Part shown: one piece after another, positions 20,912 to 44,875 of the stretch
Position numbering within the stretch: the first letter of the stretch is position 1
Layout: each line of letters opens with the position of its first letter
Source of the DNA: Paenibacillus sp. FJAT-26967
Lineage (GTDB): Bacteria; Bacillota; Bacilli; Paenibacillales; NBRC-103111
Assembly: GCF_001541095.1 (NCBI RefSeq)
Contig: NZ_LMXH01000001.1
Coordinates: 1,948,842-2,012,841 of the forward strand
Direction: 5' to 3'
Length of the DNA: 64,000 nucleotides
Position numbers and translations under genes: made by a program
Notes under the pieces: model-generated
Seen by the model: the letters and a program-made list of their open reading frames with translations, nothing else
Database searches by the model: none
What the model was told of the DNA's origin: nothing

Positions 20912-23900
20912 ATGCTAGTCTCGGCAGCGACTTTATCTAATTCTTCTGTTAAACATCCTTTAACTCATCCCCAGAAGCGGATTTGGTATATTGAGAATAT
21001 TTACCCAAATTCTTCATTGTACAATATCGGTGGCCCTGTGCGAATCAAGGAGACGGTTGATTTCGGTTTGCTGGAGGAAGCCATCCAGAGTTTCATTCGA
21101 AGACATGACGGCACAAGAATTCAGATTATCGGAGATCATGGTGAAGCTCATCAATATGTAATCCCATATGAGCACAAGAAATTAGATTTTCATGACTTTT
21201 CCAATTGCGAGAATCCTGTTGAAGCATTTCAGAACTGGGTAAATCTTGAGGCTTCCAAGCCGATACGTTTGGGGATAGACCCGCTATATTATTTTGGAAT
21301 GTTTCGCATATCCGAGCGTGACAACGGATATTTGGTCAAATGTCATCATATCATTGCCGATGGTTGGTCCAACCACATCTTGACGGATCAAATAGCCCAG
21401 GAATATTGGAAGCTGTTAGCGGGAGATACGGCAAATATTGCTGAATCTGCCCCTTCTTATTTTGATTATCTAGATTCTGAACAGAAATATTTACAATCAG
21501 ACAGGTTTGTTAAGAACAAGCTATTCTGGAATGAAAAGTTCAAAGTTCTGCCGGAAGGATTAATGTACAGCACTTCGGATCGTACAAACGGCAGAAGGAA
21601 AACCTTCGAATTAGAACCACTACTTTCTTCAAGAATCCGAACTTACGCGAATTCATTCAACATCTCGTTGAATACCTTTTTTGTTTTCATTTACTTCCTT
21701 TATATACAAAAAACTACGCAGCAAAATGACATCGTTATAGGAACACCGGTATTAAACCGATCCGGCAGAAAAGAAAAAAGCACTTTCGGCATGTTCACAA
21801 GTACGATGCCTTTTCGGTTCAGGCTCGATGACCGTGCAACGGTTGCAGATACGTTAACCCGGATTCAAAAAGAACTGATGGAATGTTATTTTCATCAACG
21901 TTATCCCTATGATCTTCTCATAAAGGATCTGGAGTTGAAAAAACTAGGTTATAACAATTTGTTCGAAACTTGTGTCAACTACTACAATACAAAGCTGTCA
22001 TCGAATATGAACGGTACATCCATTCAAAATGTAGAATTTTACAACGGACATCAATTGTTCTCTCTACAGCTGGTCATTAAAGATTGGTCGGAGTCGGGCA
22101 GCTTGACACTGGATATAGACTATAAGATCGATGATTACACGGAAGAACAGATTGAAGAAATGGGTTTGCGGCTGCAAATTATAATTGATCAAATTATAGA
22201 AGATTCGGAAGCTTGCTTAAGTAAGATCGGCCTTGTGTCAGCGGCGGAGAAGACGGAGCAAATTGTGACGTTTAATGCGACGCAAACGAATTATCCCAGC
22301 GATAAAACAATTTATCAGTTGTTTGAAGAACAAGTCGAACGGACACCGGATCGAGTTGCGATCCGCTTCGAGCAAGATCAATTGACTTACATTGAGCTTA
22401 ACGAGAAGGCTAACAAGCTTGCGCGTTACTTGATAAGCAGAGATGTTACAAAGGAAACGATAGTTGGCTTATGGACACATCATTCTATTGAAACCGTTGT
22501 TGCCATCCTAGGCATACTAAAAGCGGGTGCAGCTTATCTGCCTATTGATCCTGCTTATCCGAATGAACGAATTCGGTATATGCTGGAGGACTCAGGCACG
22601 GGTTTGGTACTCACCAACGTGGATATGGACGGCGATTTCGACTTTACATTAGAAATCGTCCATTTGAATGATCCGACTATTTACACACAAGCGTCTTCTA
22701 ACCTGGCGGTTACAAATAATCGGAACGATCTTGTTTATGTGATTTATACATCGGGTTCGACAGGCAAACCCAAAGGAACGATGATCGAGCATCAAGGTCT
22801 TACGAATTACATCTGGTGGGCGACGCTTAAGTACGTGTCCGAGGACACGGAAGTGTTCCCGCTCTATACATCTTTAGCTTTTGATCTTACCGTTACGTCC
22901 GTCTTCACGCCGCTAATTAGTGGGGGAACCATACTCGTTTACCGGGATTACGGCGATGAATTTGTGCTGCATCGTATTATGAGGGATAACGAGGCAACCG
23001 TAATCAAGCTTACTCCTGCACATTTGTCTTTACTGAAAGAAATGGACAATCGGAATTCATCCGTTCAGCGTTTTATCGTGGGTGGTGAAGATCTCAAAGT
23101 TAGTTTGGCCCAAAGTATAACGGATAGTTTTGACGGAAAAATCGAGATCTATAACGAATACGGTCCTACTGAAACTGTAGTGGGCTGCATGATACATAAA
23201 TATGAGAGTGAACAGGATCATAGAGCTTCCGTGCCTATCGGCATACCTGCGGATAATGTCATGATCTATATTCTTGATCCCGGAATGAATCCCGTACCCG
23301 TCGGTACAATTGGCGAAATGTACATTTCAGGAGACGGAGTTGCAAGAGGATATTTGAATCGAGACGATCTGACGACAGATAGATTCATAGACAATCCTTT
23401 TGAAACAGATAAAAGAATGTACCGGACGGGAGACCTGGCGAAACGGCTTCCGTCGGGCAGAATAGAATATTGTGGGCGTGTCGATCATCAAGTCAAGATA
23501 CGCGGATACCGGATAGAACTTGCTGAGATTGAGAAGCATCTGCTGCAGCACGAAGCCGTGCAAGATGCGGTCGTCATTGACCGCGAGCATGAGAATCAAA
23601 CCAAATATCTTTGTGCCTACATGGTACTGAATTTGGATATTCCAATAGAAAACTTAAGAAAGCATTTAATAGATGCATTGCCCGAATACATGGTGCCATC
23701 TTTTTTCATAGAAATGGACGAGATTCCGTTGAATGTGAACGGCAAAGTGAATCGGAGCCGGCTCCCCGAACCCGATATGAGCGGCGGGGCGACTACTGAA
23801 TTCATTTCCAGCCGCAATGAACATGAGGAACTTTTGGCGCGTGCACTTGAAGAAATTCTTCAGATTGACCAAATTGGAATGACGAACAATTTTTATCATC

Positions 23901-25435
23901 TTGGCGGAGATTCCATCAAAGCGATCCAGGTTGCTTCCAAGCTGAATAGTGTAGGCTGCACAATCAGAGTGAAAGACATTCTCTCTAATCCGATTATTGA
24001 GAATATGGCGAAATTCCTCGAAACCAAAGTCAAGGATCGTACCCTGCAGCAGCAGAAATGTGAGGGTATCATAGAGAATACGCCCATTTCATCCTGGTTT
24101 TTTAAGCAAAATTTTAATTCGCCTGAGCATTATCATCAATCGGTGCTTCTGAATCTGAAACATGAGATTGATGCCTCTGAGCTGGAGCATATTCTTCGCA
24201 CACTCATTCAGCACCATGATGCGTTAAGAATCAATGTTGATGCAGAGAACGGGCAGTTGTTTTACAACAATCAGTTGGATGACCATGCCTTTATTGAAGT
24301 GAATGTATTCCGGCTCTCTAGTTACCCGGCCCGGGAGCAGGCGGAACGAATAGCTCAATTGGGACAATCGTTTAAGGCGGCTATGAGTTTACAAAATGAC
24401 AGGTTAATCAAAGCCTGCATCTTCGATCTTGGACACAGCGGCCAAAAGCTGCTGATAGCCGCTCATCATTTGGTAGTTGACGGTATATCATGGCGTATTC
24501 TTCTTGAAGATCTGGCATCTATGTTGACGAGCACCCGTAACGGAGCAGAAGCTTCTCTGCCTTTAAAAACAGATTCCATGCAAAGCTGGGCCCGATTCTT
24601 ACAAAACTATCAGCAAGAAGCCTTTAAGGAGCAGAGCTACTGGCAGACGGTCGTCGGTGATTTGGCGACGATTCCCGTGGATGCTGATTGTGACGAAGAT
24701 ACCGTGGCAACTTCCAGTACGCTGACGCATCATTTCTCAGTCGTGGAAACAAACCAGCTGCTCCTTCAGGCTCACAACGCATACGGAACAGAACCCAAAG
24801 ATTTAATGATTGCGGCACTTGCGGGAACAATTTATGACTACTTTAAGCTAGATCAAGCTGTGATTGAACTTGAAGGTCACGGACGTGAGGAATTAGACGA
24901 ATTAATTGATGTCTCTAGAACCGTTGGCTGGTTTACGACCATGTATCCTGTTAAATTGAGCAGAAATTCTGATGAGCTGTCCGGCTTAATCAAATCAGTT
25001 AAAGAACAGATTCGCAGGATACCGAATAACGGCATCGGTTTCGGCGTACTCCAGCACATATCCGGTGTTTTCCCTGATTACGGCAAGCATAAACTTGTCC
25101 GCTTTAATTACTTAGGAGACTTTGACGCTGTAATGAACAACAGTTGGTTTTCGTACGCGAACGAGGACAGCGGAGCGGATTCATCCCCCGCTAACCAGAT
25201 GACTTCACTGCTCGATGTAAATGCGCTCGTAGTAAATCGCCAGCTGAGCTTGACTATAAGCTATAGCCGTAATCGCTTCAAAGATGAAACAGTAGTAGGG
25301 TTCTTGTCAGCCTATGTTACGAGGTTACAAGCGATCCTTCAGCACTGCTGTGAGAAAGATGATACCGAATATACACCATCAGATTTTGAAACCATAGAAC
25401 TTTCTCAAGACGAATTGGATAGCCTTTTGTTTTAA
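20912..25435 (+). CDS. NRPS C-A(Asn)-PCP-E: N-acyl-D-Asn prodrug module
   Basis: A 1507-residue synthetase. Condensation domain (about 10-440) with HHIIADG near 143-149. Adenylation domain (about 470-960) with YTSGSTGKPKG near 611, RTGDL and IRGYRIE. Carrier domain with LGGDSIKA, Ser near 999. Epimerization domain (about 1065-1490) with HHLVVDG, EGHGREE, RTVGWFTTMYP and FNYLGD. Reading the ten pocket positions by alignment to GrsA gives D-L-T-K-I-G-E-V-G-K, essentially the known Asn code. A first module made of C, A(Asn), PCP and E is the signature of prodrug systems (XcnA, ZmaO, ClbN, AmiA), where a starter C domain adds a fatty acyl group and E makes D-Asn. The peptidase two genes downstream fits. 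Confidence 0.9.
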   Translation: MLVSAATLSNSSVKHPLTHPQKRIWYIENIYPNSSLYNIGGPVRIKETVDFGLLEEAIQSFIRRHDGTRIQIIGDHGEAHQYVIPYEHKKLDFHDFSNCENPVEAFQNWVNLEASKPIRLGIDPLYYFGMFRISERDNGYLVKCHHIIADGWSNHILTDQIAQEYWKLLAGDTANIAESAPSYFDYLDSEQKYLQSDRFVKNKLFWNEKFKVLPEGLMYSTSDRTNGRRKTFELEPLLSSRIRTYANSFNISLNTFFVFIYFLYIQKTTQQNDIVIGTPVLNRSGRKEKSTFGMFTSTMPFRFRLDDRATVADTLTRIQKELMECYFHQRYPYDLLIKDLELKKLGYNNLFETCVNYYNTKLSSNMNGTSIQNVEFYNGHQLFSLQLVIKDWSESGSLTLDIDYKIDDYTEEQIEEMGLRLQIIIDQIIEDSEACLSKIGLVSAAEKTEQIVTFNATQTNYPSDKTIYQLFEEQVERTPDRVAIRFEQDQLTYIELNEKANKLARYLISRDVTKETIVGLWTHHSIETVVAILGILKAGAAYLPIDPAYPNERIRYMLEDSGTGLVLTNVDMDGDFDFTLEIVHLNDPTIYTQASSNLAVTNNRNDLVYVIYTSGSTGKPKGTMIEHQGLTNYIWWATLKYVSEDTEVFPLYTSLAFDLTVTSVFTPLISGGTILVYRDYGDEFVLHRIMRDNEATVIKLTPAHLSLLKEMDNRNSSVQRFIVGGEDLKVSLAQSITDSFDGKIEIYNEYGPTETVVGCMIHKYESEQDHRASVPIGIPADNVMIYILDPGMNPVPVGTIGEMYISGDGVARGYLNRDDLTTDRFIDNPFETDKRMYRTGDLAKRLPSGRIEYCGRVDHQVKIRGYRIELAEIEKHLLQHEAVQDAVVIDREHENQTKYLCAYMVLNLDIPIENLRKHLIDALPEYMVPSFFIEMDEIPLNVNGKVNRSRLPEPDMSGGATTEFISSRNEHEELLARALEEILQIDQIGMTNNFYHLGGDSIKAIQVASKLNSVGCTIRVKDILSNPIIENMAKFLETKVKDRTLQQQKCEGIIENTPISSWFFKQNFNSPEHYHQSVLLNLKHEIDASELEHILRTLIQHHDALRINVDAENGQLFYNNQLDDHAFIEVNVFRLSSYPAREQAERIAQLGQSFKAAMSLQNDRLIKACIFDLGHSGQKLLIAAHHLVVDGISWRILLEDLASMLTSTRNGAEASLPLKTDSMQSWARFLQNYQQEAFKEQSYWQTVVGDLATIPVDADCDEDTVATSSTLTHHFSVVETNQLLLQAHNAYGTEPKDLMIAALAGTIYDYFKLDQAVIELEGHGREELDELIDVSRTVGWFTTMYPVKLSRNSDELSGLIKSVKEQIRRIPNNGIGFGVLQHISGVFPDYGKHKLVRFNYLGDFDAVMNNSWFSYANEDSGADSSPANQMTSLLDVNALVVNRQLSLTISYSRNRFKDETVVGFLSAYVTRLQAILQHCCEKDDTEYTPSDFETIELSQDELDSLLF

Positions 25436-25463
25436 ATGACGGAACGGATGCTGGAGGGACCGT

Positions 25464-26714
25464 ATGGCTAAAGTCATTTTTTTCGGAGTTGACTTGCATG
25501 GACATGTTAATCCGACACTTGGATTAATTCATAAGTTGATCGAACGCGGAGAAGAAGTTGTCTATTACTGCAGCGATGCGTTTCAAGACAAGATTGAACA
25601 AACCGGCGCGACTTTTCGAAGTTACAGAGGACTGCTTGGATTTGGCACAAATGATGGAACAGGCATCGATACCTTCATGGTATTTGCTGATTTTATCGTG
25701 AACAAAAGTCACATTATTATAGAGGCTCTTCAAGAAGAAGTTACTCAATGGCAGCCGGACTATATCATACATGATGCCTTTTCCCTTTGGGGCAAGCAAT
25801 TTGCCGAACAATTGGGCATTCCGGGCATTTCTGTCTTTGCAAACTTCCCATTTATAGATGAGATGGCAGATCTCGATCCGGATTTTTTTATGGAATATGT
25901 ACTACGAGCTGCCGACGATCCTATTTATAAGAAGTACAAGGGACAGCACGACATGTACCGGAAGCTGCTCGACAAGCTGTCTAGAATGCTTTCTATAAAG
26001 CACGGGTTGCATAATGTTAATGTCATTAACGATATATTCTGCAGCAAGGAAGCTTTGAATATTCTATTTACTTCCCGGGAATTTCAGATCTATGCCGATG
26101 CTTTTGATGAAAGTCATTTATTTGCAGGGTATTCTTTATATTCACGCACGGAATCAGTTGAATTTCCTTACGAACAGCTGGATGGCAGGCCTTTAATTTA
26201 TATCGCTTTCGGTACGATATACAACGAGCTGGAAGAAATTTATAAAACCTGTTTAGAAGCGTTCGGAAGCAGAGAGCATCAAGTTATCTTGTCTGTGGGC
26301 AATAAAATAAATCTGCAGGAACTGGGCGAAATACCGGATAACTTCATCGTTCGGCCGTATGTCCCGCAGCTCGAAATTCTGAAACGTGCGGATGTATTCA
26401 TTAGTCACGGCGGCGCCAACAGCATCTATGAAGGGTTATGCAATCATGTTCCTTTGGTTGTCATGCCACAAGTATTTGATGAATACATGGGAGCGTTAAT
26501 GGTTGAGAAGGCGGGAGCGGGAATCTATCTCCGTCAGGCAGAAGTAAGTGCAGCCGAGCTTAAAGAAGCAGTCGAACAGGTGCTAATGACACCGTCCTAT
26601 CGTGATAATTGCTGCAGGATTAAGCAATCGTTTGAAGCGACGGGCGGTTTGGACTATGCAGTTGATGGAATTTTAAAATTTGCTAAGCAGAGGGTTGCTC
26701 ATGAGACGTTATAG
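25464..26714 (+). CDS. Macrolide-type (GT1/MGT) glycosyltransferase
   Basis: A 416-residue GT-B enzyme of the MGT/YjiC type. The N-terminal KVIFFGVDLHGHVNPTLGL acceptor domain and the C-terminal donor site SHGGANSIYEGLCNHVPLV with PQVFDEYMGA are visible. It would transfer a sugar from a UDP-type donor to the peptide-polyketide or an intermediate. Relatives both decorate natural products and inactivate them for self-protection. ATG 25464 follows GGAGGG, 28 bases after the first NRPS gene, and the end overlaps the next gene, so it belongs to the operon. No sugar-biosynthesis genes are present, implying a common UDP-sugar donor. Confidence 0.87.
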   Translation: MAKVIFFGVDLHGHVNPTLGLIHKLIERGEEVVYYCSDAFQDKIEQTGATFRSYRGLLGFGTNDGTGIDTFMVFADFIVNKSHIIIEALQEEVTQWQPDYIIHDAFSLWGKQFAEQLGIPGISVFANFPFIDEMADLDPDFFMEYVLRAADDPIYKKYKGQHDMYRKLLDKLSRMLSIKHGLHNVNVINDIFCSKEALNILFTSREFQIYADAFDESHLFAGYSLYSRTESVEFPYEQLDGRPLIYIAFGTIYNELEEIYKTCLEAFGSREHQVILSVGNKINLQELGEIPDNFIVRPYVPQLEILKRADVFISHGGANSIYEGLCNHVPLVVMPQVFDEYMGALMVEKAGAGIYLRQAEVSAAELKEAVEQVLMTPSYRDNCCRIKQSFEATGGLDYAVDGILKFAKQRVAHETL

Positions 26715-29700
26715 TTGGTATCTCTTGTTATTCACCATGGTCATTAATCTTCTACTTCCGATAAGCCCGGTGATTGCTGCTGGAGAAGAGATTACAGCGA
26801 AAGAAAAAGAGATTGAGAATTATATCGAGAAGAATTGGAAGAAGTCAGATATACCCGGCTTATCAGTTGTCATTGTAAACGGCAGTGATACGTTGTATCA
26901 GAAAAGCTTCGGTTATGCGGATGTAAAGAACGATGTGCCGGTCACACCGGAGACATTATTTGAGCTCGGGTCGACAAGTAAAGCATTTACGGCTCTGGCC
27001 GTGCTGCAGCTTGAAGAAAAAGGGCTTCTGAATTTGAATGATCCCGTAACCAAATATCTTCCTTGGTTCACGATGAATTTTGAGAAGCAGCCTGCGGAGA
27101 TTACATTAAACCAATTTCTTCATCATACCAGCGGGGTTCCTTTCAAAACCATCGGTGATATTCCAATCGCTAAGGGTGAAGAAGCACTCGAAGATACGGT
27201 TAGAGTCTTAACCGGGCAGGAACTGGATCACAAACCCGGTGAAAAATACTTGTATGCAACGATTAACTACGATGTGCTCGGTCTGATCATTCAGAAGGTT
27301 TCGGGTCAGACATACGAACAATATGTTAAAGAAAACGTACTGAAGCCCTTAGGTCTGAATCAGACCTTCGTCTTCAGGGAAGAAGCTCCTCAAGAGCTTA
27401 TGTCCAAAGGTTACAAGTTCAATCTGTTAAGGCCTGCTGTTTATGATGCGCCTATGTACAGAGGTAATACGCCTGCAGGCTATTACATTACAAATGCGGT
27501 AGATATGGCCAAATGGCTGAAAATTCAGCTGGCGCCAGCTTCAGCGGCACCTTCAATGGCTACTTTGATAGGCAAATCCCATGAACCTGATCGGTCCGTA
27601 GCTCCGGATTTTGACGGAGGCTCTTATGCGGCAGGCTGGAGTATTTATCAGAGTGGAACCGGACAGGTCTCGCATGCAGGGGCTAACCCTAACTTTTCCT
27701 CTCATATTGTGCTTCGTCCTCAAGACAATATTGGTATCGCTGTATTGACCAATCTTAATTCCCCTTACACGCAAACGATTGCCCAGGGGATTATGAATAT
27801 TATCCATGATAAGAAATTACCAGAGCCTATTAGTGATATGTATAAGAGTATCGACAATACCGCTTCGGCTGTTCTTTTTATCACAATACCTGTCATGCTG
27901 CTTATTCTATGGTTTACCGGGAATGTGGTTAGACAGATGATCAGGAAAGAACGTGTTTTCCAAGGCAGTGTCTTCTCGGTAGGTTTAAGCCTGTTCATCT
28001 TTAGCTGTTTTATGGCAGCGTTCATTTACTGCCTCTACCGGATACCAGACGTTATTTATTGGGAGCTGAACTGGGATTTCGTTAAAGTCTGGGCACCGCA
28101 AACCCTGATCTTAGCCGTTCTTTCCTTAATCGTGACCGTATTTTGTTTCAGTCTTTATTTCATTCTTACCAATTTGTTTCCAAAGTCCGACGACAGATCG
28201 TTATTTGTTCTTACACTGCTGAGCATAGCAAGCGGATTCGGAAATGCTGTCGTCATTTTTATCGTAAACGAGACGTTAAACCGGGATATCGAGACATTCC
28301 AAAGCGGGCTGCTGCTCTATTTTGTACTTGGGATTGCCGTGTATGTATTCGGTCAGAGGCTGGTAAGGACGAAGCTTGTCCGGGTTGCCAACAATATGGT
28401 GTACGACAAGAGAACCGAATTGCTGGAGAAGATTCTTGACACGTCTTACGAGAAAATAGAGGGATTAGAAGACGGGACCATTCAAGCCTCACTGAATAAT
28501 GATACGGAAACGATAAGCGATTTTTCTAATATTGTGATTACGGGTGCTACCAGCTTCGTTACGCTCATCTGCTGCTTTGTCTATATGGGGATTATTAGTT
28601 TTTACGGTATGCTGATCGCGATTCTCGTAATTGCCCTGGCGGCCGGCCTTCACTATGTTATCGGTCTTCAAGCCAACAAGCTCTGGGAGCAGACGCGGGA
28701 TATTCAAAATATCTTTTTTAAATTTATTAATGATCTCCTGAAAGGGTTTAAAGAACTCAGCATGCATCGCGGCAAACGGCAAGATTTTCAGGAAGATATG
28801 CAAGACAGCTGCAATACTTACCGGGATAAACGGATTCAAGGCGATTTGAAATTTGCCAATGTCAACGTTTTCGGTGAGTTATTGTTTACTTTCGTTATTG
28901 GAGCCGTTGCATTTCTGTTTCCGCTTCTCTTTAGTGAATTAAAGGTCGATGCACTTCGGAGCTATGTGTTTATCTTGCTGTATATGACCGGTCCCGTTCA
29001 CGGGATTCTAGGTACGATTCCGAATATATTCAGAGTTCGGATCAGCTGGAACCGGCTCCAGACCCTTTCCAAAGAGCTTGATTCGTTGAGAGACCATCAG
29101 CAGGCGGCGACAGAGATACAGCCGATTGCTTCCAAATCTATAGAGCTCGAGCTGAAGTCCGTTCAGTATCATTACAGCACCAAAGATGGAGAGAGTTTTG
29201 CGGTAGGTCCTTTCAACTATGCTTTCCGTACCGGAGAAATCATTTTCATTACAGGCGGTAACGGCAGCGGTAAATCCACCCTGGCTAAACTGATTACCGG
29301 ACTCTATGTTCCGGCTCAGGGAGAAATTCTCATCAATGGTGAGAAGGTTAGCGCCGCACAGTTAGGCCAGCAGTATTCCGCCATTTTCAGCGATTTTCAT
29401 TTATTCGAGAAAATGTATGGAATCGACTATAAGTCTAAGCAGAAGGATATTGAGCATTTCCTGAAGGTGCTGCATTTAGAGGATAAGGTTCAAATCCAAG
29501 ACGGTGTTTTCCAATCAATCAAGCTCTCGACAGGACAACGGAAAAGACTTGCACTTCTTGTCAGTTACTTGGAGGATCGTCCGGTCTATCTCTTTGATGA
29601 ATGGGCGGCGGATCAGGATCCGGAATATCGCTCATTCTTCTATCATACGCTGCTGCCTGAATTGAAAAATCGCGGGAAATGTGTCATTGCCATTACGCAT

Positions 29701-29811
29701 GATGATCGCTTCTTCCATTTGGCGGATCGTGTAATCAAGATGGAGATGGGGAAAATGGTACAAAGTGATTCACAGCCTTCAGCGCAAGACATGCACTATG
29801 CAACCATTTAG
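26701..29811 (+). CDS. D-Asn prodrug peptidase fused to ABC exporter (ZmaM-like)
   Basis: A 1036-residue fusion. Residues 1-28 are a signal/anchor. The serine hydrolase domain of peptidase family S12 (about 35-375) has S91-T-S-K94, Y185 in YATINY and HAGAN; the spacing parallels S95/K98/Y186 of ClbP. Three membrane helices follow (about 395-500), then an ABC membrane domain and a C-terminal ATPase with GGNGSGKST, LSTGQ and YLFDEW. This is the architecture of ZmaM, which cuts the N-acyl-D-Asn cap at the outer membrane face during export. ATG 26701 (after GAGGG) overlaps the glycosyltransferase stop by 14 bases. The YxN motif reads YAT. Confidence 0.88.
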   Translation: MRRYSWYLLLFTMVINLLLPISPVIAAGEEITAKEKEIENYIEKNWKKSDIPGLSVVIVNGSDTLYQKSFGYADVKNDVPVTPETLFELGSTSKAFTALAVLQLEEKGLLNLNDPVTKYLPWFTMNFEKQPAEITLNQFLHHTSGVPFKTIGDIPIAKGEEALEDTVRVLTGQELDHKPGEKYLYATINYDVLGLIIQKVSGQTYEQYVKENVLKPLGLNQTFVFREEAPQELMSKGYKFNLLRPAVYDAPMYRGNTPAGYYITNAVDMAKWLKIQLAPASAAPSMATLIGKSHEPDRSVAPDFDGGSYAAGWSIYQSGTGQVSHAGANPNFSSHIVLRPQDNIGIAVLTNLNSPYTQTIAQGIMNIIHDKKLPEPISDMYKSIDNTASAVLFITIPVMLLILWFTGNVVRQMIRKERVFQGSVFSVGLSLFIFSCFMAAFIYCLYRIPDVIYWELNWDFVKVWAPQTLILAVLSLIVTVFCFSLYFILTNLFPKSDDRSLFVLTLLSIASGFGNAVVIFIVNETLNRDIETFQSGLLLYFVLGIAVYVFGQRLVRTKLVRVANNMVYDKRTELLEKILDTSYEKIEGLEDGTIQASLNNDTETISDFSNIVITGATSFVTLICCFVYMGIISFYGMLIAILVIALAAGLHYVIGLQANKLWEQTRDIQNIFFKFINDLLKGFKELSMHRGKRQDFQEDMQDSCNTYRDKRIQGDLKFANVNVFGELLFTFVIGAVAFLFPLLFSELKVDALRSYVFILLYMTGPVHGILGTIPNIFRVRISWNRLQTLSKELDSLRDHQQAATEIQPIASKSIELELKSVQYHYSTKDGESFAVGPFNYAFRTGEIIFITGGNGSGKSTLAKLITGLYVPAQGEILINGEKVSAAQLGQQYSAIFSDFHLFEKMYGIDYKSKQKDIEHFLKVLHLEDKVQIQDGVFQSIKLSTGQRKRLALLVSYLEDRPVYLFDEWAADQDPEYRSFFYHTLLPELKNRGKCVIAITHDDRFFHLADRVIKMEMGKMVQSDSQPSAQDMHYATI

Positions 29812-29864
29812 CCGCTGACCTGCCAACTGCTGCAATCAGAAACGGATAAAAGGACGGGAGAAGC

Positions 29865-34911: not shown

Positions 34912-34948
34912 ACGAAGGTTAAGCTTATTACATCGGGAGGTGGACCGA

Positions 34949-37900: not shown

Positions 37901-38851
37901 ATCCGAGGTGTCATTCATGCAGCCGGCATCGGTGAAGGGAATCTTCTAGGGAAGCTAACCGAGGATGAATTTAGACAAATCATTGCATCAAAAGTACAGG
38001 GTACTTGGCTGTTGGACCGATTGACTGAACAAGATCAGCTGGAGTTTTTCGTTATGTTCTCCTCTGCTATTACTTTAATGGGCGGCATGGGATCCGGGCC
38101 TTATACTGCAGGCAATGCCTATTTGGAAGGTTTCGCTTCTTACAGAGCAAGCCAGGGGAAACGGACGCTCGCAATAAGCTGGCCGGCCTGGGACAATACA
38201 GGATTGGCTGAGGGGGAATCGGTACAGGAAGAGAAGGAATTGTTCCGTGTTCTTCCCGTAAAGCAGGGAATAAATGCATTCCACCGCTCGTTGAATCATA
38301 CAATCAAGCACCTGTTCGTCGGTGAACTCAATCATCAAAGCGATCTTTATGCACTCGGGGAACTGCTGCCGTTCAGGCTGGCGCCTGCACTTCAACCGGA
38401 TGGGAAGACGGCGCCCAAAGCACCGGCAGCGGCAAAATTAAAAGAGAACATCTCGATTCGCCTAAAAGGGAAGGCGGACAGCCAATATACGGAAGCCGAG
38501 CAGAAAGTGGCTCAAGCCTGGAAACAGGTGCTTGGTTACGATGAACTGGATGTCCAGGCGAACTTTTTCGAAATCGGCGGAGACTCCATTCTCATTACGA
38601 AAGTCCATGCCCTCATCGAAGAACAGTTTCCGGGCAGGACGACGATAGCTGATTTGTTCTCCTATCCGACTATTGCGAAGATAGCGGAGCATCTAAGTTA
38701 TGCCGCTTTGCCGGAGGCAGGCGCCTTACTCGCTTCGGAAGAGGCATTCAGACAAGAGATGTTGAGAATACTCGATCATCTTGGTAATCAAGAGCTCACC
38801 ATTGATGAAGCTCTGGACAGATACCACTGCCTGGAGGTGGCGAATGGATAA
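34949..38851 (+). CDS. AT-less type I PKS: KS-KR-ACP
   Basis: A 1300-residue protein. Ketosynthase (about 30-460) with DTTCSSS (Cys near 202), EAHGTGTKLGDP and KSNIGHLD. A linker ends with LPTYPFDKHRCW. The ketoreductase (about 885-1110) has NADPH-binding TGGLGGIG, FSSAIT and PYTAGNAY, so Ser and Tyr are present. The carrier has IGGDSILI, Ser near 1212. No AT or DH domain is visible. It should add one malonyl unit and reduce the keto group to hydroxyl. The start at 34949 follows GGGAGGTGG; an upstream ATG at 34901 overlaps the AT gene. It ends with a short docking-type helix and overlaps the next gene by eight bases. Confidence 0.9.
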   Translation: MDFRSIKLGDMTLGSSNDFSEIAIEEISEQDIAIIGISLKLPLAETPEEFWHNLRTGLDCVRGIPPARQQDVDRYLEFIGQNPDQITYGEAAYLDEIDKFDYSFFKLSPKEASLLDPNQRLFLQTAWKAIEDAGYGGSKLEGSRTGVYLGFGSDSDYKKMIHEVEPEFVSLSMPGNVRPIIASRLSYLMDLNGPSMVVDTTCSSSLVAVHLACQAIRNGECDLALAGGIQVHLIPVRDFEVGIESSTSRARTFDDDSDGTGTGEGVVAMLLKPLSKAQEDRDHVYAVIKSSAVNQDGSSVGITAPNAKAQEAVIVEAWKRAGIDPRTISYIEAHGTGTKLGDPIEIEGIQRAFRRYTDDKQFCAVSAVKSNIGHLDNTAGIAGLLKAVLSLKYKELIPTLHFEKPNSKIAFEESPVYVNNRLEKWESESDQRRCGVSSFGLSGTNCHLVLEEAPAANPTQIAGAAARPELFVLSAKTEPALQSHIHNYIAFLKNHPSLSLGDLCYTACTGRGHYLYRVAFAVEDVRELIRVLEECAQAGLREQTDSLTRNNFVDPDPLNDKVRRVSDVNRLREMNVTAEAELSKFLDSGKRNIAVLHELCSLYVQGATIEWDRLYKQEKRKRISLPTYPFDKHRCWLDLPELREEENEPGTDSLYQQVWLKQPFNDLIAAHKPGCYLVFNDRSGIGSRLAQKLRIAGSQVFEVGLGDSYEKRSDSSFVIGGGQADYERLLRDLSGKPIDRIVHLFSLSSPDDGYSRNDLERRLNHSVYSLFYLVQALVKIRASEQVDLVIITDRADEVISAQDTVVPENTALIGLGKVVRWESSNLKVRCIDVEPTENAADTIWTELHCDTKEYKIAYRHGVRYIERIDTLNMEIVESSPVAFKSDGVYLITGGLGGIGLHIGRHLASQEKVHLAMINRTGLPHRSEWDGLLRGGHSSDKQTRVLRAVLEIERMGSQVDIIQADAANEAQMRAALDLLREKHGHIRGVIHAAGIGEGNLLGKLTEDEFRQIIASKVQGTWLLDRLTEQDQLEFFVMFSSAITLMGGMGSGPYTAGNAYLEGFASYRASQGKRTLAISWPAWDNTGLAEGESVQEEKELFRVLPVKQGINAFHRSLNHTIKHLFVGELNHQSDLYALGELLPFRLAPALQPDGKTAPKAPAAAKLKENISIRLKGKADSQYTEAEQKVAQAWKQVLGYDELDVQANFFEIGGDSILITKVHALIEEQFPGRTTIADLFSYPTIAKIAEHLSYAALPEAGALLASEEAFRQEMLRILDHLGNQELTIDEALDRYHCLEVANG

Positions 38852-41800
38852 GATAGCACGATTGATCTTAGAAAGTGTTGCTTCCGGCAAGTTAGATAAA
38901 GAAACCGGGGTCGAGCTGTTATGGACAATCAAGCAGCAAGATAAGAAGAATGTAGGGGATATCGCCATCGTCGGTCTTTCCTTGAAAATGCCGGATGCGG
39001 ACAACCTGGAGCAGTATTGGGATCATATCAGGAATAAGCGTGATTCGATACGGCAATTCCCTGCCGCAAGACAGCAGGACTCGAAGCGGTTTATAACTAA
39101 CTTCACCGGTTTGCGAGAGGAAGATATTCAATACAGTTACGGCGGCTATCTGAATGAAGTGGACGGGTTCGATTACGGATTCTTCCAGTTATCGCCGAAG
39201 GAAGCATCTTTAATGGACCCCAACCAGAGGCTTTTCCTGCAAACTGCCTGGGAAGCTATTGAAGATGCCGGTTATGGCGGGAAGCGGCTCACAGGCAGCA
39301 GGACCGGAGTTTATCTGGGATATGCCGACTGGCCGGTTTATGGGCAGTACATCACCAAAAATCAGCCATCGCATGTCGATACGGCCAGTGTAGGGAATAC
39401 ACCTTCCATAATTGCAAGCCGAATCTCGTACCTGCTTGATTTGAAAGGCCCTGCCTTTCTGGTCGATACTGCCTGCTCATCCTCTTTGGTGGCGGTGCAT
39501 CTGGCCTGCAAGGCTTTGAAAAATGATGAATGCGACTTGGCCATCGCAGGCGGAGTCAAGGTCTGTCTGATGCCGGTCGATGGTGTTTTTGAAATGGGCA
39601 TCGAATCGTCTAACCACCGGACGAGCACCTTCGATGACAGCTCCGACGGTACGGTGTGGGGAGAGGGTACCGTGGCCCTGCTGCTCAAGCCGTTGGATCA
39701 AGCACTGCGGGATCATGATCCGATTCATGCGGTGATTAAAGGCAGTGCGATCAACCAGGACGGGACTTCCGTAGGGATTACGGCTCCCAATGCTGCCTCC
39801 CAGGAGAAGCTGTTGATCCAAGCATGGGAAGATGCTGGCATAGATCCGGAAACGATCACTTATATCGAAGCGCATGGAACCGGCACGAGGTTGGGTGACC
39901 CGATTGAAGTGGACGGGATTCGCAGAGCTTTTCGACATTATACGGATAAAAAGCAGTTTTGCGCTCTGGGTTCAGTGAAAACGAATGTCGGCCATCTGGA
40001 CGCAGCTTCCGGTGTCGCCGGTCTCGCTAAAGCTATTGCGGCTTTGAAGAATAAAGAACTGCCCCCGACGATCCACTTCACTAAGCCGAACCGGAACATT
40101 CCGTTTGAGCATTCGCCGGTTTATGTGAACGATAGAGCTGAAGAATGGAATACGGACGGATTTCCGAGAAGATGCGGAGTAAGTTCATTTGGCTTCAGCG
40201 GGACGAATTGTCATGTGATTCTGGAAGAAGCGCCGGTTATAGAAAGCCGAGCGGGAGCATCAGTCGCCGATGAAGAAATTCTGGCGCTGTCTGCCAAAAG
40301 CAAAACTGCCCTTGAAGAGTTAATCCGTATGTATCTGAAAAATCTTCCGGATAACCAAGCAAGCTTATACGATATTTGCTGCACCGCCAATACGGGAAGA
40401 GGCCATTATAGCTTCAGACTGGCCATAATAGCCCGGAGCAAAGCAGAGTTGATTGGACAACTTCAAAGGGCCGCCGATGAAGGACTGGAGAAGTGTAATT
40501 CGTATGGAATGCCTTATGGAGAGCATCGTCTGATAAACGCGCAGCGGGATGACAAAACGGCCGGTGAGCTTACTGCGGATGAGCTGCGAAGATACACCCG
40601 GGAAGCGGGTGATCTGACCTTGCAAATCATCGAGCAGCCTCCCATAAGGGAACAATTAGAACAGTTAGGCAGGTACTATGTGCAGGGCGCGGATGTAAAC
40701 TGGGAGCTTTTCTACGGCACTGGTATCAGCAAGAAAGCACGCCTCCCGTATTATCCGTTTCAGAATAAGAGGTGTTGGATCGAGTTCGAACAAGATGTTG
40801 CTGCAGAAATACTTCCTCTGAGCCCTGCCGGGAGGGAGGACAGTCAGCTTCGAGCACGTGCAGCAAAATCCGCTCCGCAGATCCTTCTTAAAGGAAGGCA
40901 GGATGAAGTTTATTCTCCGATGGAGAAGAAACTGGCTCTTGTATGGGGACAGCTGCTGGGAATACAAGAAGTCGATATTTATGATGATTTTTTTGAACTG
41001 GGAGGCAATTCGATCTTAGCCATCAAGATGGAGGTTGACTTGGAAGGGGACGGCATTTCGTTCGATTCGAACGATATGTATTTGTACCGCACAATTAATG
41101 AAGCTGCAGCACACCTGATGGGTAAGGGGACGCAGCTGGATTCACAAGTTGAAAAGAAGCGGTATCCGGCCACCCCGACGAACGAGTCTGAACTGCTGAC
41201 CGGCATAAGACGGGATGAGGTTGCTTCTGAACAACTCCCGTCCGCAGTTGAAATTTTGCCGGATATGGAGCCGTTTAATGATATTTTCTACCGTAATTGT
41301 CTGTATAACTCTATGTTTCCCGTCGTTCAGCATTTCAACCGGAGCATTCTGCCTTTCTTACTCAACGATATGATTCTATTTACGGGCACGCAAGACGGGG
41401 ATCAGACACGGTATGCAGTCGAATACGTATCTGTTCATGCTATTGAAGAAGTATTTGCACAACTGATGCTTCAAGTGGATACAAGGTCGGATAACACAGA
41501 TATCCGCAAAGAAATTATCGCAAGCATATCTCAGGGCAAACCGGTCGTAGTATGGGTGGATTCTTATTACGAATCCATACGCAAGGACGCTTATCTAACG
41601 CAGCACTTGGATCACACTTTGCTGGTATACGGTTATAACGAGGAAGAGCGGCTTTTTCATATTATTGAACATGACCGGCGGGAGAACCTGTCGTATAAGA
41701 AATGTACGCTCTCCTACGAGGATATGGAGAAAGCTTGTCAAGGTTTTACGGAACATTATCTGCATCAGGATCACAGTGCGACTCACTATGTCTTTGATAC

Positions 41801-42281
41801 GATGATTTCTGAAGAATCAGCCGGTAATGAGTTGTCTGTTAACGCATTGCCAGCCTTATTAAGCCGTTTTGCACAGAACATGCTGTCCAACCGCAATAAG
41901 CTGAGTGAGAGTTTGAACGTGCTTAAGCGGTTTAGGGACGACTTTCAGTACTTCATTTCATCTGAGGATTTAATGAAAGAACATATAAATCATCTTGTTG
42001 AATTCGTTAATCAGGTTATCAATACAAAACATGTGGAAAACTACCGGTTGTCCTTACTGCTGCAGGATGAAGATGAAGTTTTAGTGCTTCTTGAGCGGCT
42101 TTTGAGTAAATGGGATCTCGTCAGAAAAGGAATTGTCAGGTACATGTATCTTCCGGTCTATCAGCTTCAATCGCTCCAAGCAATCTATGAGAAAGTGTGC
42201 GAGCTCGCTGAAGATGAAGCCGTATTTACCACACATCTGCTCTCAAAGCTTGAACCATATAGAGAGAAAACCACTGTATAG
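38844..42281 (+). CDS. PKS KS-ACP fused to BtrH-type acyltransferase domain
   Basis: A 1145-residue protein. An N-terminal docking-type helix is followed by a ketosynthase (about 38-465) with DTACSSS (Cys near 209), EAHGTGTRLGDP and KTNVGHLD. A carrier follows with LGGNSILA near 720. No AT, KR or thioesterase is present. From about 800 to 1140 lies a domain like butirosin BtrH N-terminal (PF14399), with VDSYY and HTLLVYGYN. Candidate catalytic residues are C819, D906 and H924. BtrH moves an acyl group from an ACP to an amine, so this domain may release the chain by amide formation. ATG 38844 follows GGAGGTGG. Confidence 0.82.
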   Translation: MDKIARLILESVASGKLDKETGVELLWTIKQQDKKNVGDIAIVGLSLKMPDADNLEQYWDHIRNKRDSIRQFPAARQQDSKRFITNFTGLREEDIQYSYGGYLNEVDGFDYGFFQLSPKEASLMDPNQRLFLQTAWEAIEDAGYGGKRLTGSRTGVYLGYADWPVYGQYITKNQPSHVDTASVGNTPSIIASRISYLLDLKGPAFLVDTACSSSLVAVHLACKALKNDECDLAIAGGVKVCLMPVDGVFEMGIESSNHRTSTFDDSSDGTVWGEGTVALLLKPLDQALRDHDPIHAVIKGSAINQDGTSVGITAPNAASQEKLLIQAWEDAGIDPETITYIEAHGTGTRLGDPIEVDGIRRAFRHYTDKKQFCALGSVKTNVGHLDAASGVAGLAKAIAALKNKELPPTIHFTKPNRNIPFEHSPVYVNDRAEEWNTDGFPRRCGVSSFGFSGTNCHVILEEAPVIESRAGASVADEEILALSAKSKTALEELIRMYLKNLPDNQASLYDICCTANTGRGHYSFRLAIIARSKAELIGQLQRAADEGLEKCNSYGMPYGEHRLINAQRDDKTAGELTADELRRYTREAGDLTLQIIEQPPIREQLEQLGRYYVQGADVNWELFYGTGISKKARLPYYPFQNKRCWIEFEQDVAAEILPLSPAGREDSQLRARAAKSAPQILLKGRQDEVYSPMEKKLALVWGQLLGIQEVDIYDDFFELGGNSILAIKMEVDLEGDGISFDSNDMYLYRTINEAAAHLMGKGTQLDSQVEKKRYPATPTNESELLTGIRRDEVASEQLPSAVEILPDMEPFNDIFYRNCLYNSMFPVVQHFNRSILPFLLNDMILFTGTQDGDQTRYAVEYVSVHAIEEVFAQLMLQVDTRSDNTDIRKEIIASISQGKPVVVWVDSYYESIRKDAYLTQHLDHTLLVYGYNEEERLFHIIEHDRRENLSYKKCTLSYEDMEKACQGFTEHYLHQDHSATHYVFDTMISEESAGNELSVNALPALLSRFAQNMLSNRNKLSESLNVLKRFRDDFQYFISSEDLMKEHINHLVEFVNQVINTKHVENYRLSLLLQDEDEVLVLLERLLSKWDLVRKGIVRYMYLPVYQLQSLQAIYEKVCELAEDEAVFTTHLLSKLEPYREKTTV

Positions 42282-42292
42282 GAGGAATAATA

Positions 42293-42556
42293 ATGACTAT
42301 CGAAACCAAAGACGAATTGAAGGAAAGAATCATTAACCTGCTTAAAGAGAATCTGGGTAATGCTGAAGAACTGGATCAACTGGGTCCGGATGATGATTTG
42401 TCGGTTCTTGGGGTGAATTCCATGACCTTTATTAAACTCGTGATTGCAACCGAAATGGAGTTTGGCGTGACCTGGAAGGATGAGGATCTCGATTTTCGTA
42501 ATTTTATGACGGTGAACAATATTATGAACTACATCTCCAGCTCCAGCAACGACTAA
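42293..42556 (+). CDS. Free-standing acyl carrier protein
   Basis: An 87-residue acidic protein with the phosphopantetheine site LGVNSMTF (Ser near residue 43). The sequence is an ordinary helical carrier fold. ATG 42293 follows AGGAGG, 11 bases after the PKS gene. In butirosin synthesis a free ACP (BtrI) carries the side chain that BtrH transfers. By analogy this ACP may carry a unit modified by the radical SAM enzyme or the BtrH-like protein encoded next to it. No phosphopantetheinyl transferase gene lies in the window. Confidence 0.85.
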   Translation: MTIETKDELKERIINLLKENLGNAEELDQLGPDDDLSVLGVNSMTFIKLVIATEMEFGVTWKDEDLDFRNFMTVNNIMNYISSSSND

Positions 42557-42586
42557 TCCAATTGAGGAAAGCGGGGAATATTCGCT

Positions 42587-43729
42587 ATGTTAACTAAAGC
42601 AGGAAGCGGCGTTTCACTTTTAGATCATGTACAAGATTTGACTCCGGAAATTAAACAATTGACTCTGTTTCCCTCCGAGCTGTGTAATTACCGCTGCAGC
42701 TTCTGCCATATTTGGGGCGAAACCGGATGGGCGCTCAAAGAGCCTCAGCGCGCTATTCGTGAACAGCTCGATATTAATGTGCTGAAGAGTTTTCTGGATG
42801 ATGTAACAGCGGTTAATAAAAATCTCGGTGTTATTATTACGGGCGGAGAACCTATGCTGTACAAGCATTTTACAGAGCTGGTCGAACATCTGCGCAGCAA
42901 AAAAGCGAACATCTACCTGTTGACCAACGGCTCGCTGATAAAGAACAAAGTTCAATTTATTATGGAGAATATCGTAGCATTAAACATTTCGATTGACGGT
43001 CCGGAGGAATTCCACGATTCTATTCGCGGTAAAGGCAGCTTCAAGACGATCTGTGAAAATATCGACGCATTAATTGAAGAGAAGCGCAAACGCAATAAAA
43101 TGTTTCCTTTTATCAACATCACGATGGTGCTTTCCAAATACAACTACCGGAGCATTAAAGATTTCATGGGAGCTTTGCGTGAACGCTTTAAAGATGCGAA
43201 TGTTGTCCTTCATGACTCGAAGAACCCTTGGATGAAACGCAGAGACCTCTCGGTTAACTTCGCGCCGCTGCTGTTCACATCACAGGAAAGAGGAATGAGC
43301 TATGCGGCTCAAATGAAAGAAAATCTGGATTGTGACGTATCCCCGGCATGGCAGGGCTTTGTGGAAGAAACAATCGATACCGACTTCGATACGGCGATTT
43401 TGAAGAGCGATCTGGAAGAGATCTGGCAGTCGGAGGGAATCGACACTTCCAGTTTTGTGGATATTCATGATTATTACACAGACATTGACAATGTATTTGG
43501 CCGCACGAAATGCGTAGCCCCTTGGCACGAAATGGTTATTCGCCGCACGGGCGAAGTCTATCCATGTGTGGACTTCCCGGATTATAAATATGGGAATATT
43601 TATGAGAATTCTTTCCAGGAAATGTGGGAAGGCGAACGTGCAGTCAAGTTCAGGAACTACTTAAAAACAAGCAATCTGATGGTATGCAACCGGTGTACCC
43701 GGATGTTTGCCGACAAGGAATCGTTCTAA
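42587..43729 (+). CDS. Radical SAM enzyme with SPASM-like C-terminus
   Basis: A 380-residue enzyme. The 4Fe-4S site for S-adenosylmethionine is C33-x3-C37-x2-C40 (CNYRCSFC), followed by the GGEP motif (ITGGEPML). The C-terminal part has further cysteines in KCVAPWHE, YPCVDF and VCNRC, a SPASM/twitch-type pattern for auxiliary clusters. Such enzymes oxidise or crosslink peptides, alcohols or carrier-bound substrates. It sits 30 bases after the free ACP gene and 30 before the BtrH-like gene, pointing to a shared substrate. The reaction cannot be read from the sequence. Confidence 0.86.
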   Translation: MLTKAGSGVSLLDHVQDLTPEIKQLTLFPSELCNYRCSFCHIWGETGWALKEPQRAIREQLDINVLKSFLDDVTAVNKNLGVIITGGEPMLYKHFTELVEHLRSKKANIYLLTNGSLIKNKVQFIMENIVALNISIDGPEEFHDSIRGKGSFKTICENIDALIEEKRKRNKMFPFINITMVLSKYNYRSIKDFMGALRERFKDANVVLHDSKNPWMKRRDLSVNFAPLLFTSQERGMSYAAQMKENLDCDVSPAWQGFVEETIDTDFDTAILKSDLEEIWQSEGIDTSSFVDIHDYYTDIDNVFGRTKCVAPWHEMVIRRTGEVYPCVDFPDYKYGNIYENSFQEMWEGERAVKFRNYLKTSNLMVCNRCTRMFADKESF

Positions 43730-43759
43730 GACGCGGGATGGACGCTAGGAGGAATAGCA

Positions 43760-44875
43760 ATGGTACAGCCAGGTTCTGAAGCTTCTGGAACGAACATCTT
43801 GATGCATGAGAAAATATTGCCTCTTACAGCACCGCAAGTATACGGATTTCTGGGACATGCTTATGTTCTTGGCATTCTTCAAAATTACAAGGAATGTAAA
43901 CCGTGGATCTATAACAATTACATTCAGCTGTATATTTCACAGCACTATATCGATATCAAGGAGTATAGGCTGGACTTTAATCCGGATCTGCTGATTATTT
44001 TCGGCAATGTGCCATGGCTGGAATACAACCGGACGGATAAAGGCACATTGGCCCGGTTAGGGGTAGACATTCACGCTTTTCTTAAAGATCACATCGATCG
44101 GGGTTTTTACTTTTTCTCTTATGTGAATGACTTTTATATTCCGAATTCAATCAGTTATCAAGAGTATCATTTTACGCATGATATTCTTGTGTACGGCTAT
44201 AATCTTGATAAACGCACGTACAATATTGCGATTTTCGATGATAACCGGCTATTTTCAATGCGCGAGATCAGTTATGAGGTCTTCGAACAAGCCTACTTCA
44301 GTGACACCAGGCAAGATTATATCAGCTTGATGCGCAAAGTCTCCCCGGATGAATACGATAGTTTCAAATATGACATGAAGCTTGGTAAATATGATTTGGA
44401 TCTGGAGCTCATGGTCGATATGATGGCAGATTATCTGCACGGCGTCAATACGGGGGACAGACTCAAATTCTATTTAAATCCGGAGCCTGGGTTCTACGGC
44501 ATGAAAGTGTATAAAGCCTTGAATGATTATTTCACTTTGCTGCTCCAGGATCAAATTAATCTGGATGTGCGGCAGATGCATATTTTGTGGGAGCACAAGA
44601 AAATGATGATTGCAAGAATCCGGTATTTGCAAGAACTGGGGTATTTGGGCGAGCCGGTTACCTCGTTGGAAGCATTTATCAAGATTGAGAAGGAAGTATT
44701 CACACTTCGCAATATGCTGCTGAAATTTTTTGTGAGCCGCAACAAAACTATTATTGAAAATATTATGAAAGCGCTGGCTGGAATTCATGATACGGAAAAA
44801 GAAGCCGTACAGGATTTGATTAATCAAATCTGCAAGGAAAACCGTTTGCATCATGCCGCCCGTTCTAATAAATAA
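43760..44875 (+). CDS. Stand-alone BtrH-like protein lacking the candidate Cys
   Basis: A 371-residue soluble protein. Residues 10-190 align by eye with the BtrH-type domain of the last PKS: VNDFY matches VDSYY and HDILVYGYN matches HTLLVYGYN. At the place of C819 in the PKS domain it has a non-cysteine residue (in the stretch GFLGHAYVLG), so the two paralogs may have different jobs. The rest is helical and unassigned. ATG 43760 follows AGGAGG. It is the last gene before the proS promoter and T-box. It may be an acyltransferase, a structural partner, or a non-catalytic binder. Confidence 0.68.
   Translation: MVQPGSEASGTNILMHEKILPLTAPQVYGFLGHAYVLGILQNYKECKPWIYNNYIQLYISQHYIDIKEYRLDFNPDLLIIFGNVPWLEYNRTDKGTLARLGVDIHAFLKDHIDRGFYFFSYVNDFYIPNSISYQEYHFTHDILVYGYNLDKRTYNIAIFDDNRLFSMREISYEVFEQAYFSDTRQDYISLMRKVSPDEYDSFKYDMKLGKYDLDLELMVDMMADYLHGVNTGDRLKFYLNPEPGFYGMKVYKALNDYFTLLLQDQINLDVRQMHILWEHKKMMIARIRYLQELGYLGEPVTSLEAFIKIEKEVFTLRNMLLKFFVSRNKTIIENIMKALAGIHDTEKEAVQDLINQICKENRLHHAARSNK

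What the first reader, a model, noticed from the sequence alone, without database searches (positions are those of the whole stretch)
20912..44875. Uncharacterised hybrid NRPS/PKS operon with D-Asn prodrug logic and BtrH-type release
Ten co-directional genes combine parts that I do not recall together in one described cluster: an acyl-D-Asn NRPS module, a ZmaM-like peptidase-exporter, a glycosyltransferase, a second NRPS, a free AT, two AT-less PKS proteins, a BtrH-type domain fused to the last PKS, a free ACP, a radical SAM enzyme and a stand-alone BtrH-like protein. Colinear reading predicts acyl-D-Asn, a probably basic residue, one reduced and one unreduced malonyl unit, then transfer to an amine. 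The cap would be cut off on export.
Basis: partly seen in the sequence, partly recalled or inferred. Interest (0 to 1): 0.88.

Follow-up and report, generated by a model that had tools for sequence, protein, structure and literature searches.

The report
Conserved masked-antibiotic assembly line in Paenibacillus
A ten-gene Paenibacillus operon looks set to build a small peptide-polyketide carrying a protective cap that is cut off on export; closely similar operons occur in many related species, but the product and its last steps are unknown.

Summary
In detail: all ten co-directional genes are at 20912-44875. I read 18 further clusters with the same core in the same order, and all ten genes are under purifying selection, so it is not decayed. 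The acyl-D-Asn prodrug part is well supported: one Asn-type code in 18 of 18 NRPS1 proteins, and the residues that mark D-Asn prodrug peptidases in 18 of 18 peptidase-exporters. PKS1-PKS2 fusions in three genomes support the colinear order. The domain fused to PKS2 keeps a BtrH-type Cys and His in 19 of 19 (Asp in 18). Two points weaken. The stand-alone "BtrH-like" protein lacks the Cys in 13 of 13 and is missing from 6 of 19 clusters, five of which carry a different stand-alone BtrH_N protein. Transfer to an amine is not shown. PKS-sized open frames with BtrH_N recur across the order, so the fusion is not unique. My reading: the BtrH domain hands the chain on, perhaps to the adjacent free ACP, where a radical SAM enzyme with a BtrN-like auxiliary domain oxidises it; export removes the cap. 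Nine literature searches turned up no description. New variant of a known kind.

The parts
20912..25435 (+). NRPS1 (1507 aa): C-A(Asn)-T-E, makes acyl-D-Asn
   Evidence: two Condensation-type domains with HHxxxDG, A, T, NRPS-para261 at the C-end; code DLTKIGEVGK (Asn assignment recalled)
25464..26714 (+). MGT-family glycosyltransferase, probable self-protection or tailoring
   Evidence: TIGR01426 above cut-off; next to the peptidase-exporter in 13 of 13 genomes searched
26680..29811 (+). D-Asn prodrug peptidase fused to ABC exporter (ZmaM-like architecture); ORF as listed, likely start 26701
   Evidence: residue pattern from PMC9889268 passages
29865..33614 (+). NRPS2 (1249 aa): C-A-T plus ~200-aa fragment like the C-lobe of a condensation domain
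   Evidence: code DVESIGTVCK
33628..34911 (+). discrete malonyl-type acyltransferase (FabD-like)
   Evidence: TIGR00128 311.2 bits (cut-off 260.9)
34901..38851 (+). PKS1: KS-KR-ACP, no AT; ORF as listed, likely start 34949
   Evidence: KS Cys/His/His and KR motifs present
38781..42281 (+). PKS2: KS-ACP-BtrH domain, no AT, no KR; ORF as listed, likely start 38844
41166..42278 (+). stretch used as the BtrH-type domain: Cys840 (41298-41300), His945 (41613-41615), Asp965 (41673-41675) of the listed ORF
   Evidence: Cys and His 19 of 19, Asp 18 of 19 clusters; Cys and His line up with those of strong PF14399 proteins
42293..42556 (+). free acyl carrier protein (87 aa)
   Evidence: dN/dS 0.040, lowest of the ten
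42587..43729 (+). radical SAM enzyme, CX3CX2C plus four C-terminal Cys of a BtrN-like auxiliary-cluster domain
43760..44875 (+). stand-alone distant BtrH relative lacking the catalytic Cys (accessory, not universal)
   Evidence: no hit
45182..45208 (+). terminator-like hairpin before proS
   Evidence: 2 overlapping sites found, 0.4 expected

Best explanation
A conserved, apparently functional hybrid NRPS/AT-less-PKS gene cluster that makes a D-Asn-capped (inactive) amino-polyketide and uncaps it on export. Supported by sequence: NRPS1 builds acyl-D-Asn; NRPS2 adds one amino acid X; PKS1 adds a malonyl unit and reduces it to a hydroxyl; PKS2 adds a second malonyl unit left as a ketone; the S12 peptidase domain of the exporter cuts between D-Asn and X. 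Inferred: the Cys-His-Asp BtrH-type domain at the end of PKS2 takes the chain as an acyl-enzyme and passes it on, either to the free ACP encoded next (my preference) or directly to an amine as BtrH does; the radical SAM enzyme, whose C-terminal iron-sulphur domain resembles BtrN, oxidises the carrier-bound or released chain; the MGT-type glycosyltransferase protects the producer by capping the hydroxyl. X is probably a basic residue such as Lys (weak).
For: Same core operon in 18 further clusters; purifying selection on all ten genes, dN/dS 0.04-0.22 against P. lutrae. NRPS1 code DLTKIGEVGK in 18 of 18; that it means Asn is recalled, and PMC12283262 mentions the code in its Asp/Asn section (passage). 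Peptidase positions equivalent to ClbP E92, S95, K98, Y186, S/T188 (Thr), H/N257 (Asn), N331, W460, W466 fit in 18 of 18. KS Cys/His/His in 19 of 19 for both PKS modules; BtrH Cys and His 19 of 19. PKS1 and PKS2 are one protein in G593, G720 and G776, which supports the module order. The ACP gene lies directly before the radical SAM gene in 19 of 19, with 30 nt on each side of the radical SAM gene in the window, so there is no room for a RiPP precursor there; ACP and radical SAM have the lowest dN/dS of the ten (0.040, 0.047). All four C-terminal Cys line up with BtrN.
Against: No product, expression or biochemical data. Nothing shows what the BtrH domain's acceptor is, what the radical SAM enzyme acts on, or what the GT glycosylates. 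The X assignment rests on a recalled code that no paper in the library bears. The BtrN likeness covers only the ~70-residue auxiliary domain (E 4e-6), and that domain type occurs in enzymes of many functions (recalled). On the peptidase domain alone the best solved-structure match is not ClbP (218.7 bits) but protein Flp, 228.3 bits; the prodrug assignment rests on the residue set and the transmembrane part. No structure prediction could be run.
Confidence: 0.6

Rival explanations
1. BtrH-type release straight to a soluble amine (polyamine, amino acid or ammonia); the free ACP and radical SAM enzyme act elsewhere, for example on a separately loaded unit.
For: PF14399's prototype BtrH is an ACP:aminoglycoside acyltransferase (PMC10318531 passages). 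Paenilamicin, another prodrug-type compound of Paenibacillus, ends in spermidine (PMC9054821 passages). The sister subtype of the cluster has a second stand-alone BtrH_N protein beside it, so more than one acyl transfer is possible there.
Against: No amine-forming or acceptor gene among the ten, and no ligase to load the free ACP with another unit. Acceptor specificity cannot be read from sequence.
Confidence: 0.3
2. The BtrH domain is a cyclase or hydrolase (thioesterase substitute) that releases the chain as a lactone, lactam or acid.
For: No TE domain or TE gene among the ten, and papain-like enzymes include peptidases and amidases (PMC10318531 passages). The hydroxyl two carbons from the ketone could close a six-membered lactone (inference).
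Against: Characterised BtrH is an acyltransferase to an amine; the next gene is a free ACP that would then be unexplained.
Confidence: 0.25
3. Ordinary, already known prodrug cluster (a zwittermicin, edeine, paenilamicin, amicoumacin, xenocoumacin or colibactin relative) seen with minor changes.
For: Shares acyl-D-Asn module and ZmaM-type peptidase-exporter with such clusters.
Against: PMC9889268 (passages) names six known cluster types plus unidentified ones. GT, PKS-BtrH and ACP-radical SAM are not features I recall in any of the six, and nine literature searches (judged from listings, abstract starts and passages) showed no such set. MIBiG itself could not be searched.
Confidence: 0.1
4. 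Silent, decaying cluster.
For: None found.
Against: Catalytic motifs present; dN/dS 0.04-0.22 for all ten genes; radical SAM gene conserved in about 26 genomes.
Confidence: 0.02

Closest known systems
N-acyl-D-Asn prodrug clusters with ZmaM-type peptidase-exporters (zwittermicin ZmaM, edeine EdeA, paenilamicin PamJ)
   Same: acyl-D-Asn first module; S12 peptidase fused to an ABC exporter, with the D-Asn-binding residue set
   Different: short assembly line, adjacent MGT glycosyltransferase, AT-less PKS pair ending in a BtrH domain, free ACP and radical SAM enzyme (the comparison side is recalled; those clusters were not fetched)
Colibactin ClbP
   Same: peptidase domain and transmembrane part align over 36-493, 218.7 bits
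   Different: ClbP has no ABC part. PMC9889268 (passage) reports that uncapping precolibactin frees an amine that condenses to an imine, which this product might also do (inference)
Butirosin BtrH (PF14399) with its ACP BtrI and radical SAM enzyme BtrN
   Same: BtrH-type Cys and His in the PKS2 tail; free ACP; radical SAM auxiliary domain with all four Cys aligned to BtrN
   Different: domain fused to a PKS rather than free; no aminoglycoside genes among the ten; BtrN likeness limited to the auxiliary domain
Second cluster in the same genome (L028, G000:C1:549-569 kb)
   Same: PKS fused to BtrH_N, discrete AT, S12 peptidase
   Different: KS-DH-KR-ACP-BtrH in one protein, peptidase without ABC part, extra TE and NusG-like gene, no radical SAM hit in the stretch read

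Membership tests
N-acyl-D-Asn prodrug NRPS clusters | first module loads acyl chain and Asn and epimerises it | tested here: met
   C-A-T-E layout with HHxxxDG in first and last domains of the window protein; one code in 18 of 18, its Asn meaning recalled. The strict HHxxxDG pattern missed one of the two domains in G017, G593, G720 and G038 and both in the partial G776. The acyl chain is not readable
N-acyl-D-Asn prodrug NRPS clusters | S12 peptidase with E92, S95, K98, Y186, S/T188, H/N257, N331, W460, W466 equivalents | tested here: met
   hand mapping on the alignment; same residues in 18 of 18 (G046 not covered); criteria from PMC9889268 passages
N-acyl-D-Asn prodrug NRPS clusters | cleavage of the cap on export | not testable with these tools
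   needs knock-out and mass spectrometry
BtrH family (PF14399), PKS2 tail | profile match above cut-off | tested here: met
   36.4 bits, cut-off 29.7, C-terminal part of the profile 56-132 of 134
BtrH family (PF14399), PKS2 tail | papain-like catalytic Cys-His-Asp | tested here: met
   Cys and His 19 of 19, Asp 18 of 19 (Glu in G038); Cys and His aligned with six ORFs from five loci of strong members
BtrH family (PF14399), PKS2 tail | acyl transfer from ACP to an amine | not testable with these tools
   needs biochemistry
BtrH family, stand-alone protein 43760-44875 | catalytic Cys | tested here: not met
   absent in 13 of 13; no Pfam or NCBIfam hit; distant relation only (hhalign 95.8%)
PKS with discrete AT | KS modules without AT plus a free malonyl AT | tested here: met
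   the AT is missing from the taiwanensis and ACRRX clusters, which have homologues elsewhere
BtrN-like radical SAM dehydrogenases | CX3CX2C and one auxiliary cluster with four Cys | tested here: met
BtrN-like radical SAM dehydrogenases | whole-length relationship and alcohol oxidation | tested here: inconclusive
   only the auxiliary domain matches BtrN; best core matches are other radical SAM enzymes; NCBIfam twitch model 98 bits is below its cut-off 170. Oxidation not testable here
RiPP-maturing radical SAM enzymes | precursor peptide gene directly beside the radical SAM gene | tested here: not met
   30 nt between ACP and radical SAM genes and 30 nt between it and the next gene

The most novel reading that the evidence does not exclude
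A new way to end an assembly line: the BtrH-type cysteine domain hands the finished chain from PKS2 to a free ACP, a dedicated radical SAM oxidase modifies it there, and a hydroxyl-glycosylating enzyme and a D-Asn cap together keep it harmless. On export the cap is cut, and the freed amine of residue X closes onto the ketone three carbons away, giving a reactive hydroxy-pyrroline by the same capped-amine trick as colibactin but on an unrelated skeleton.
Probability: 0.25. Interest if true: 0.75.

Novelty: new variant of a known kind. Interest (0 to 1): 0.55.

Why it matters
It is a compact, intact and widespread gene cluster (its radical SAM gene is in about 26 genomes, and in 9 of 49 genera of the order sample) with the marks of a toxic or antibiotic product: a cap-and-cut prodrug system and a glycosyltransferase. 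It pairs an assembly line with a papain-like acyltransferase and a radical SAM enzyme next to a free carrier protein. That makes it a tractable place to ask what fused BtrH domains do in polyketide synthases, a recurring architecture in the order for which my searches showed no biochemical account.

Tried and rejected
Decay was considered and rejected. A non-elongating KS in PKS1 was suspected when a strict EAHGTGT pattern failed in 10 of 19 PKS1 modules; aligning all 19 showed the His is kept and neighbouring residues differ. In one search lutrae PKS1 reads ASAIT where the others read SSAIT; I treat its KR as intact, untested. A radical SAM fusion in G593 (open frame 2062 aa) was not accepted: several frames on both strands are open over the same stretch, probably unread bases, unverified. 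A RiPP role was rejected for lack of room. The promoter scan upstream gave nothing above shuffles. Searches of the BtrH-type parts against solved structures found nothing. Plasmid records hold no radical SAM relative at E 1e-40; for the exporter 50 records match, none over 80% of it, and the 15 rows listed cover the ABC half only. The phylum-wide sample gave only the own genome (1 of 398). Nine literature searches showed no description of this cluster; one search listed 25 of 43 and only 10 of 12,410 papers. MIBiG, antiSMASH and most subscription papers were not available.

Rows dropped: L041 (Chloroflexi contig, 33 residues matched) was left out of all counts. In one search a pattern missed several A domains; one search replaced it. 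In one search six reverse-strand loci were read in the wrong direction; redid all 18, of which 3 (L005, L008, L011) have a Cys near the site but not at the aligned position. In one search the Cys of the second stand-alone BtrH_N proteins was not placed on the PKS2 Cys by the aligner; I call it equivalent by its motif (GGDCF, like NDCF).

Full report
Anatomy. One search shows ten + strand ORFs at 20912-44875 and searches give their domains. NRPS1 is C-A-T-E, followed by an MGT-family glycosyltransferase, a peptidase-ABC exporter, NRPS2 (C-A-T with a weak C-lobe-like fragment at its end), a discrete AT, PKS1 (KS-KR-ACP), PKS2 (KS-ACP-BtrH_N), a free ACP, a radical SAM enzyme and a 371-aa protein without family hits. 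The window is C1:1948842-2012841 of a 5.46-Mb genome. A hairpin with a T run lies at 45182-45208 before proS.

Conservation. The one genome-contig scan, with the radical SAM protein, returned 13 loci; 12 are full-length or nearly full-length relatives (70-99% identity): 11 Paenibacillus and Chengkuizengella marina. At E 1e-40, 20 of 392 genomes of the order sample (9 of 49 genera) have it, 3 of 104 in the family sample and 1 of 398 in the phylum sample, the own genome. I read 19 clusters: 14 (window included) and 5 (G046 is cut by its contig end and shows nothing before its luciferase-like gene; G776 starts inside NRPS1). Of the 14, all ten genes in the same order occur in 11; taiwanensis and ACRRX lack the AT, and G017 lacks the stand-alone BtrH-like gene, as do the five. 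proS was found downstream only in P. lutrae among the stretches read. Percent identity to the window outside lutrae, by tblastn piece: radical SAM 68-88, ACP 49-73, peptidase-exporter 54-69, GT 52-68, AT 47-62, NRPS1 45-56, NRPS2 42-52, PKS1 46-61, PKS2 41-73. Against P. lutrae dN/dS is 0.04-0.07 for ACP, radical SAM, peptidase-exporter and GT and 0.15-0.22 for the other six.

Cap and cut. The NRPS1 code is DLTKIGEVGK in 18 of 18. That it stands for Asn is recalled; PMC12283262 (passage) mentions it in its Glu/Gln/Asp/Asn section, as also compatible with a Cya-3 moiety. The peptidase part aligns with ClbP over 36-493 (218.7 bits); protein Flp scores a little higher on the peptidase domain alone (228.3 bits). 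PMC9889268 (passages) says that prodrug peptidases keep Asn331, Trp460 and Trp466 and have Ser/Thr at 188 and His/Asn at 257, while the wider S12 family has Asn at 188. The window has the matching Asn, Trp, Trp, Thr and Asn, plus the Ser-Lys-Tyr triad and Glu92, as do all 18 proteins aligned. This is good evidence for membership in the D-Asn prodrug class.

Chain. The NRPS2 code is DQESIGTVCK in 11, DVESIGTVCK in 2 (window, lutrae) and DHET[IL]G[ST]VCK in 5 of 18. The first two go with the Cys-less stand-alone gene (13 of 13), the third with its absence (5 of 5). These are two subtypes, though shared ancestry alone could explain the link. In the second subtype a luciferase-like monooxygenase lies before the AT in 5 of 6 (G017, G593, G776, G038, G046; not G720) and a nitroreductase follows NRPS1 in the 4 tested (G593, G720, G776, G038). 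The nearest code I recall is bacitracin Lys, so a basic residue is plausible but weak. Both KS domains keep Cys-His-His in 19 of 19, and the KR Tyr and Asn are present in 19 of 19. PKS1 and PKS2 are one polypeptide in G593, G720 and G776, which supports the reading X, then hydroxyl-bearing unit, then keto unit.

Chain transfer. The PKS2 tail keeps Cys and His in 19 of 19 and Asp in 18 of 19 (Glu in G038). Its Cys and His line up with those of strong PF14399 proteins from other genomes. PMC10318531 (passages) describes BtrH as an ACP:aminoglycoside acyltransferase. The stand-alone protein of the window is a distant relative (hhalign 95.8%) that lacks the Cys in 13 of 13. It belongs to a large multicopy family: one search found relatives in 21 of 59 genomes, up to 13 matches in one. 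It is more likely a partner or binding protein than an enzyme of the BtrH type. The second subtype differs: beside the cluster lies another stand-alone protein of 519-577 aa above the BtrH_N cut-off, with a GGDCF Cys motif and a His (G017, G593, G720, G038, G046; in G776 the stretch that would show it on the NRPS1 side was not read). So a second, apparently complete BtrH-type enzyme goes with that subtype, and the Cys-less protein with the window's.

Not unique. In one search, PF14399 occurs in 199 of 392 genomes of the order, and 23 of the rows listed (the list was cut) lie in open frames of 900 aa or more. Fifteen of these 23 are in genomes with the radical SAM gene close by; the other eight are elsewhere, including one in the own genome (L028). 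I checked the PKS nature only for those and the named loci.

Radical SAM. CX3CX2C and four C-terminal Cys are invariant in the 13 and in the 14. The closest solved structure for the C-terminal domain is BtrN (E 4e-6), with all four Cys aligned; the core is closest to other radical SAM enzymes. With 30 nt on either side there is no room for a precursor peptide gene. The ACP gene precedes it in all 19 clusters. A carrier-bound substrate is the natural inference, not a result.

Literature. Searches showed no account of this cluster. I read passages only, of PMC9889268, PMC9054821, PMC2922099, PMC10318531 and PMC12283262; other papers were seen as listings. PMC9889268 mentions prodrug peptidases in clusters of unidentified products; this one may be among them.

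Noticed in passing
L028 (G000:C1:549000-568900): A second PKS-BtrH cluster in the same genome: A-T protein, KS-DH-KR-ACP-BtrH protein of 1908 aa, NusG-like gene, S12 peptidase without ABC part (43% to the window's peptidase domain), thioesterase, C-A-T NRPS and AT.
   Followed up: partly
window 32991-33611: The last ~200 residues of NRPS2 weakly resemble the C-terminal lobe of a condensation domain (E 0.0009 in the window, 2e-8 in G017) without the HHxxxDG half; NRPS2 matches reach within 3 residues of its end in all 14 clusters. Perhaps a docking element towards PKS1.
   Followed up: partly
L003-L020 and window 43760-44872: A large family of mostly Cys-less BtrH relatives, many copies per genome (13 matches in G046, 9 in G017). 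Function unknown.
   Followed up: partly
L035 and L036 clusters: Two clusters lack the discrete AT; homologues at 45-46% lie about 120 kb away in the same genomes, so the AT may be supplied from elsewhere.
   Followed up: partly
window 58363-61643: Heme oxygenase next to a phytochrome-GGDEF protein: a light-sensing pair with its chromophore enzyme.
   Followed up: no
window 47410-48129: 239-aa protein whose C-terminal part matches small multidrug resistance transporters; longer than a usual SMR protein.
   Followed up: no
window 17094-18077: 327-aa ORF on the minus strand with no Pfam hit.
   Followed up: no
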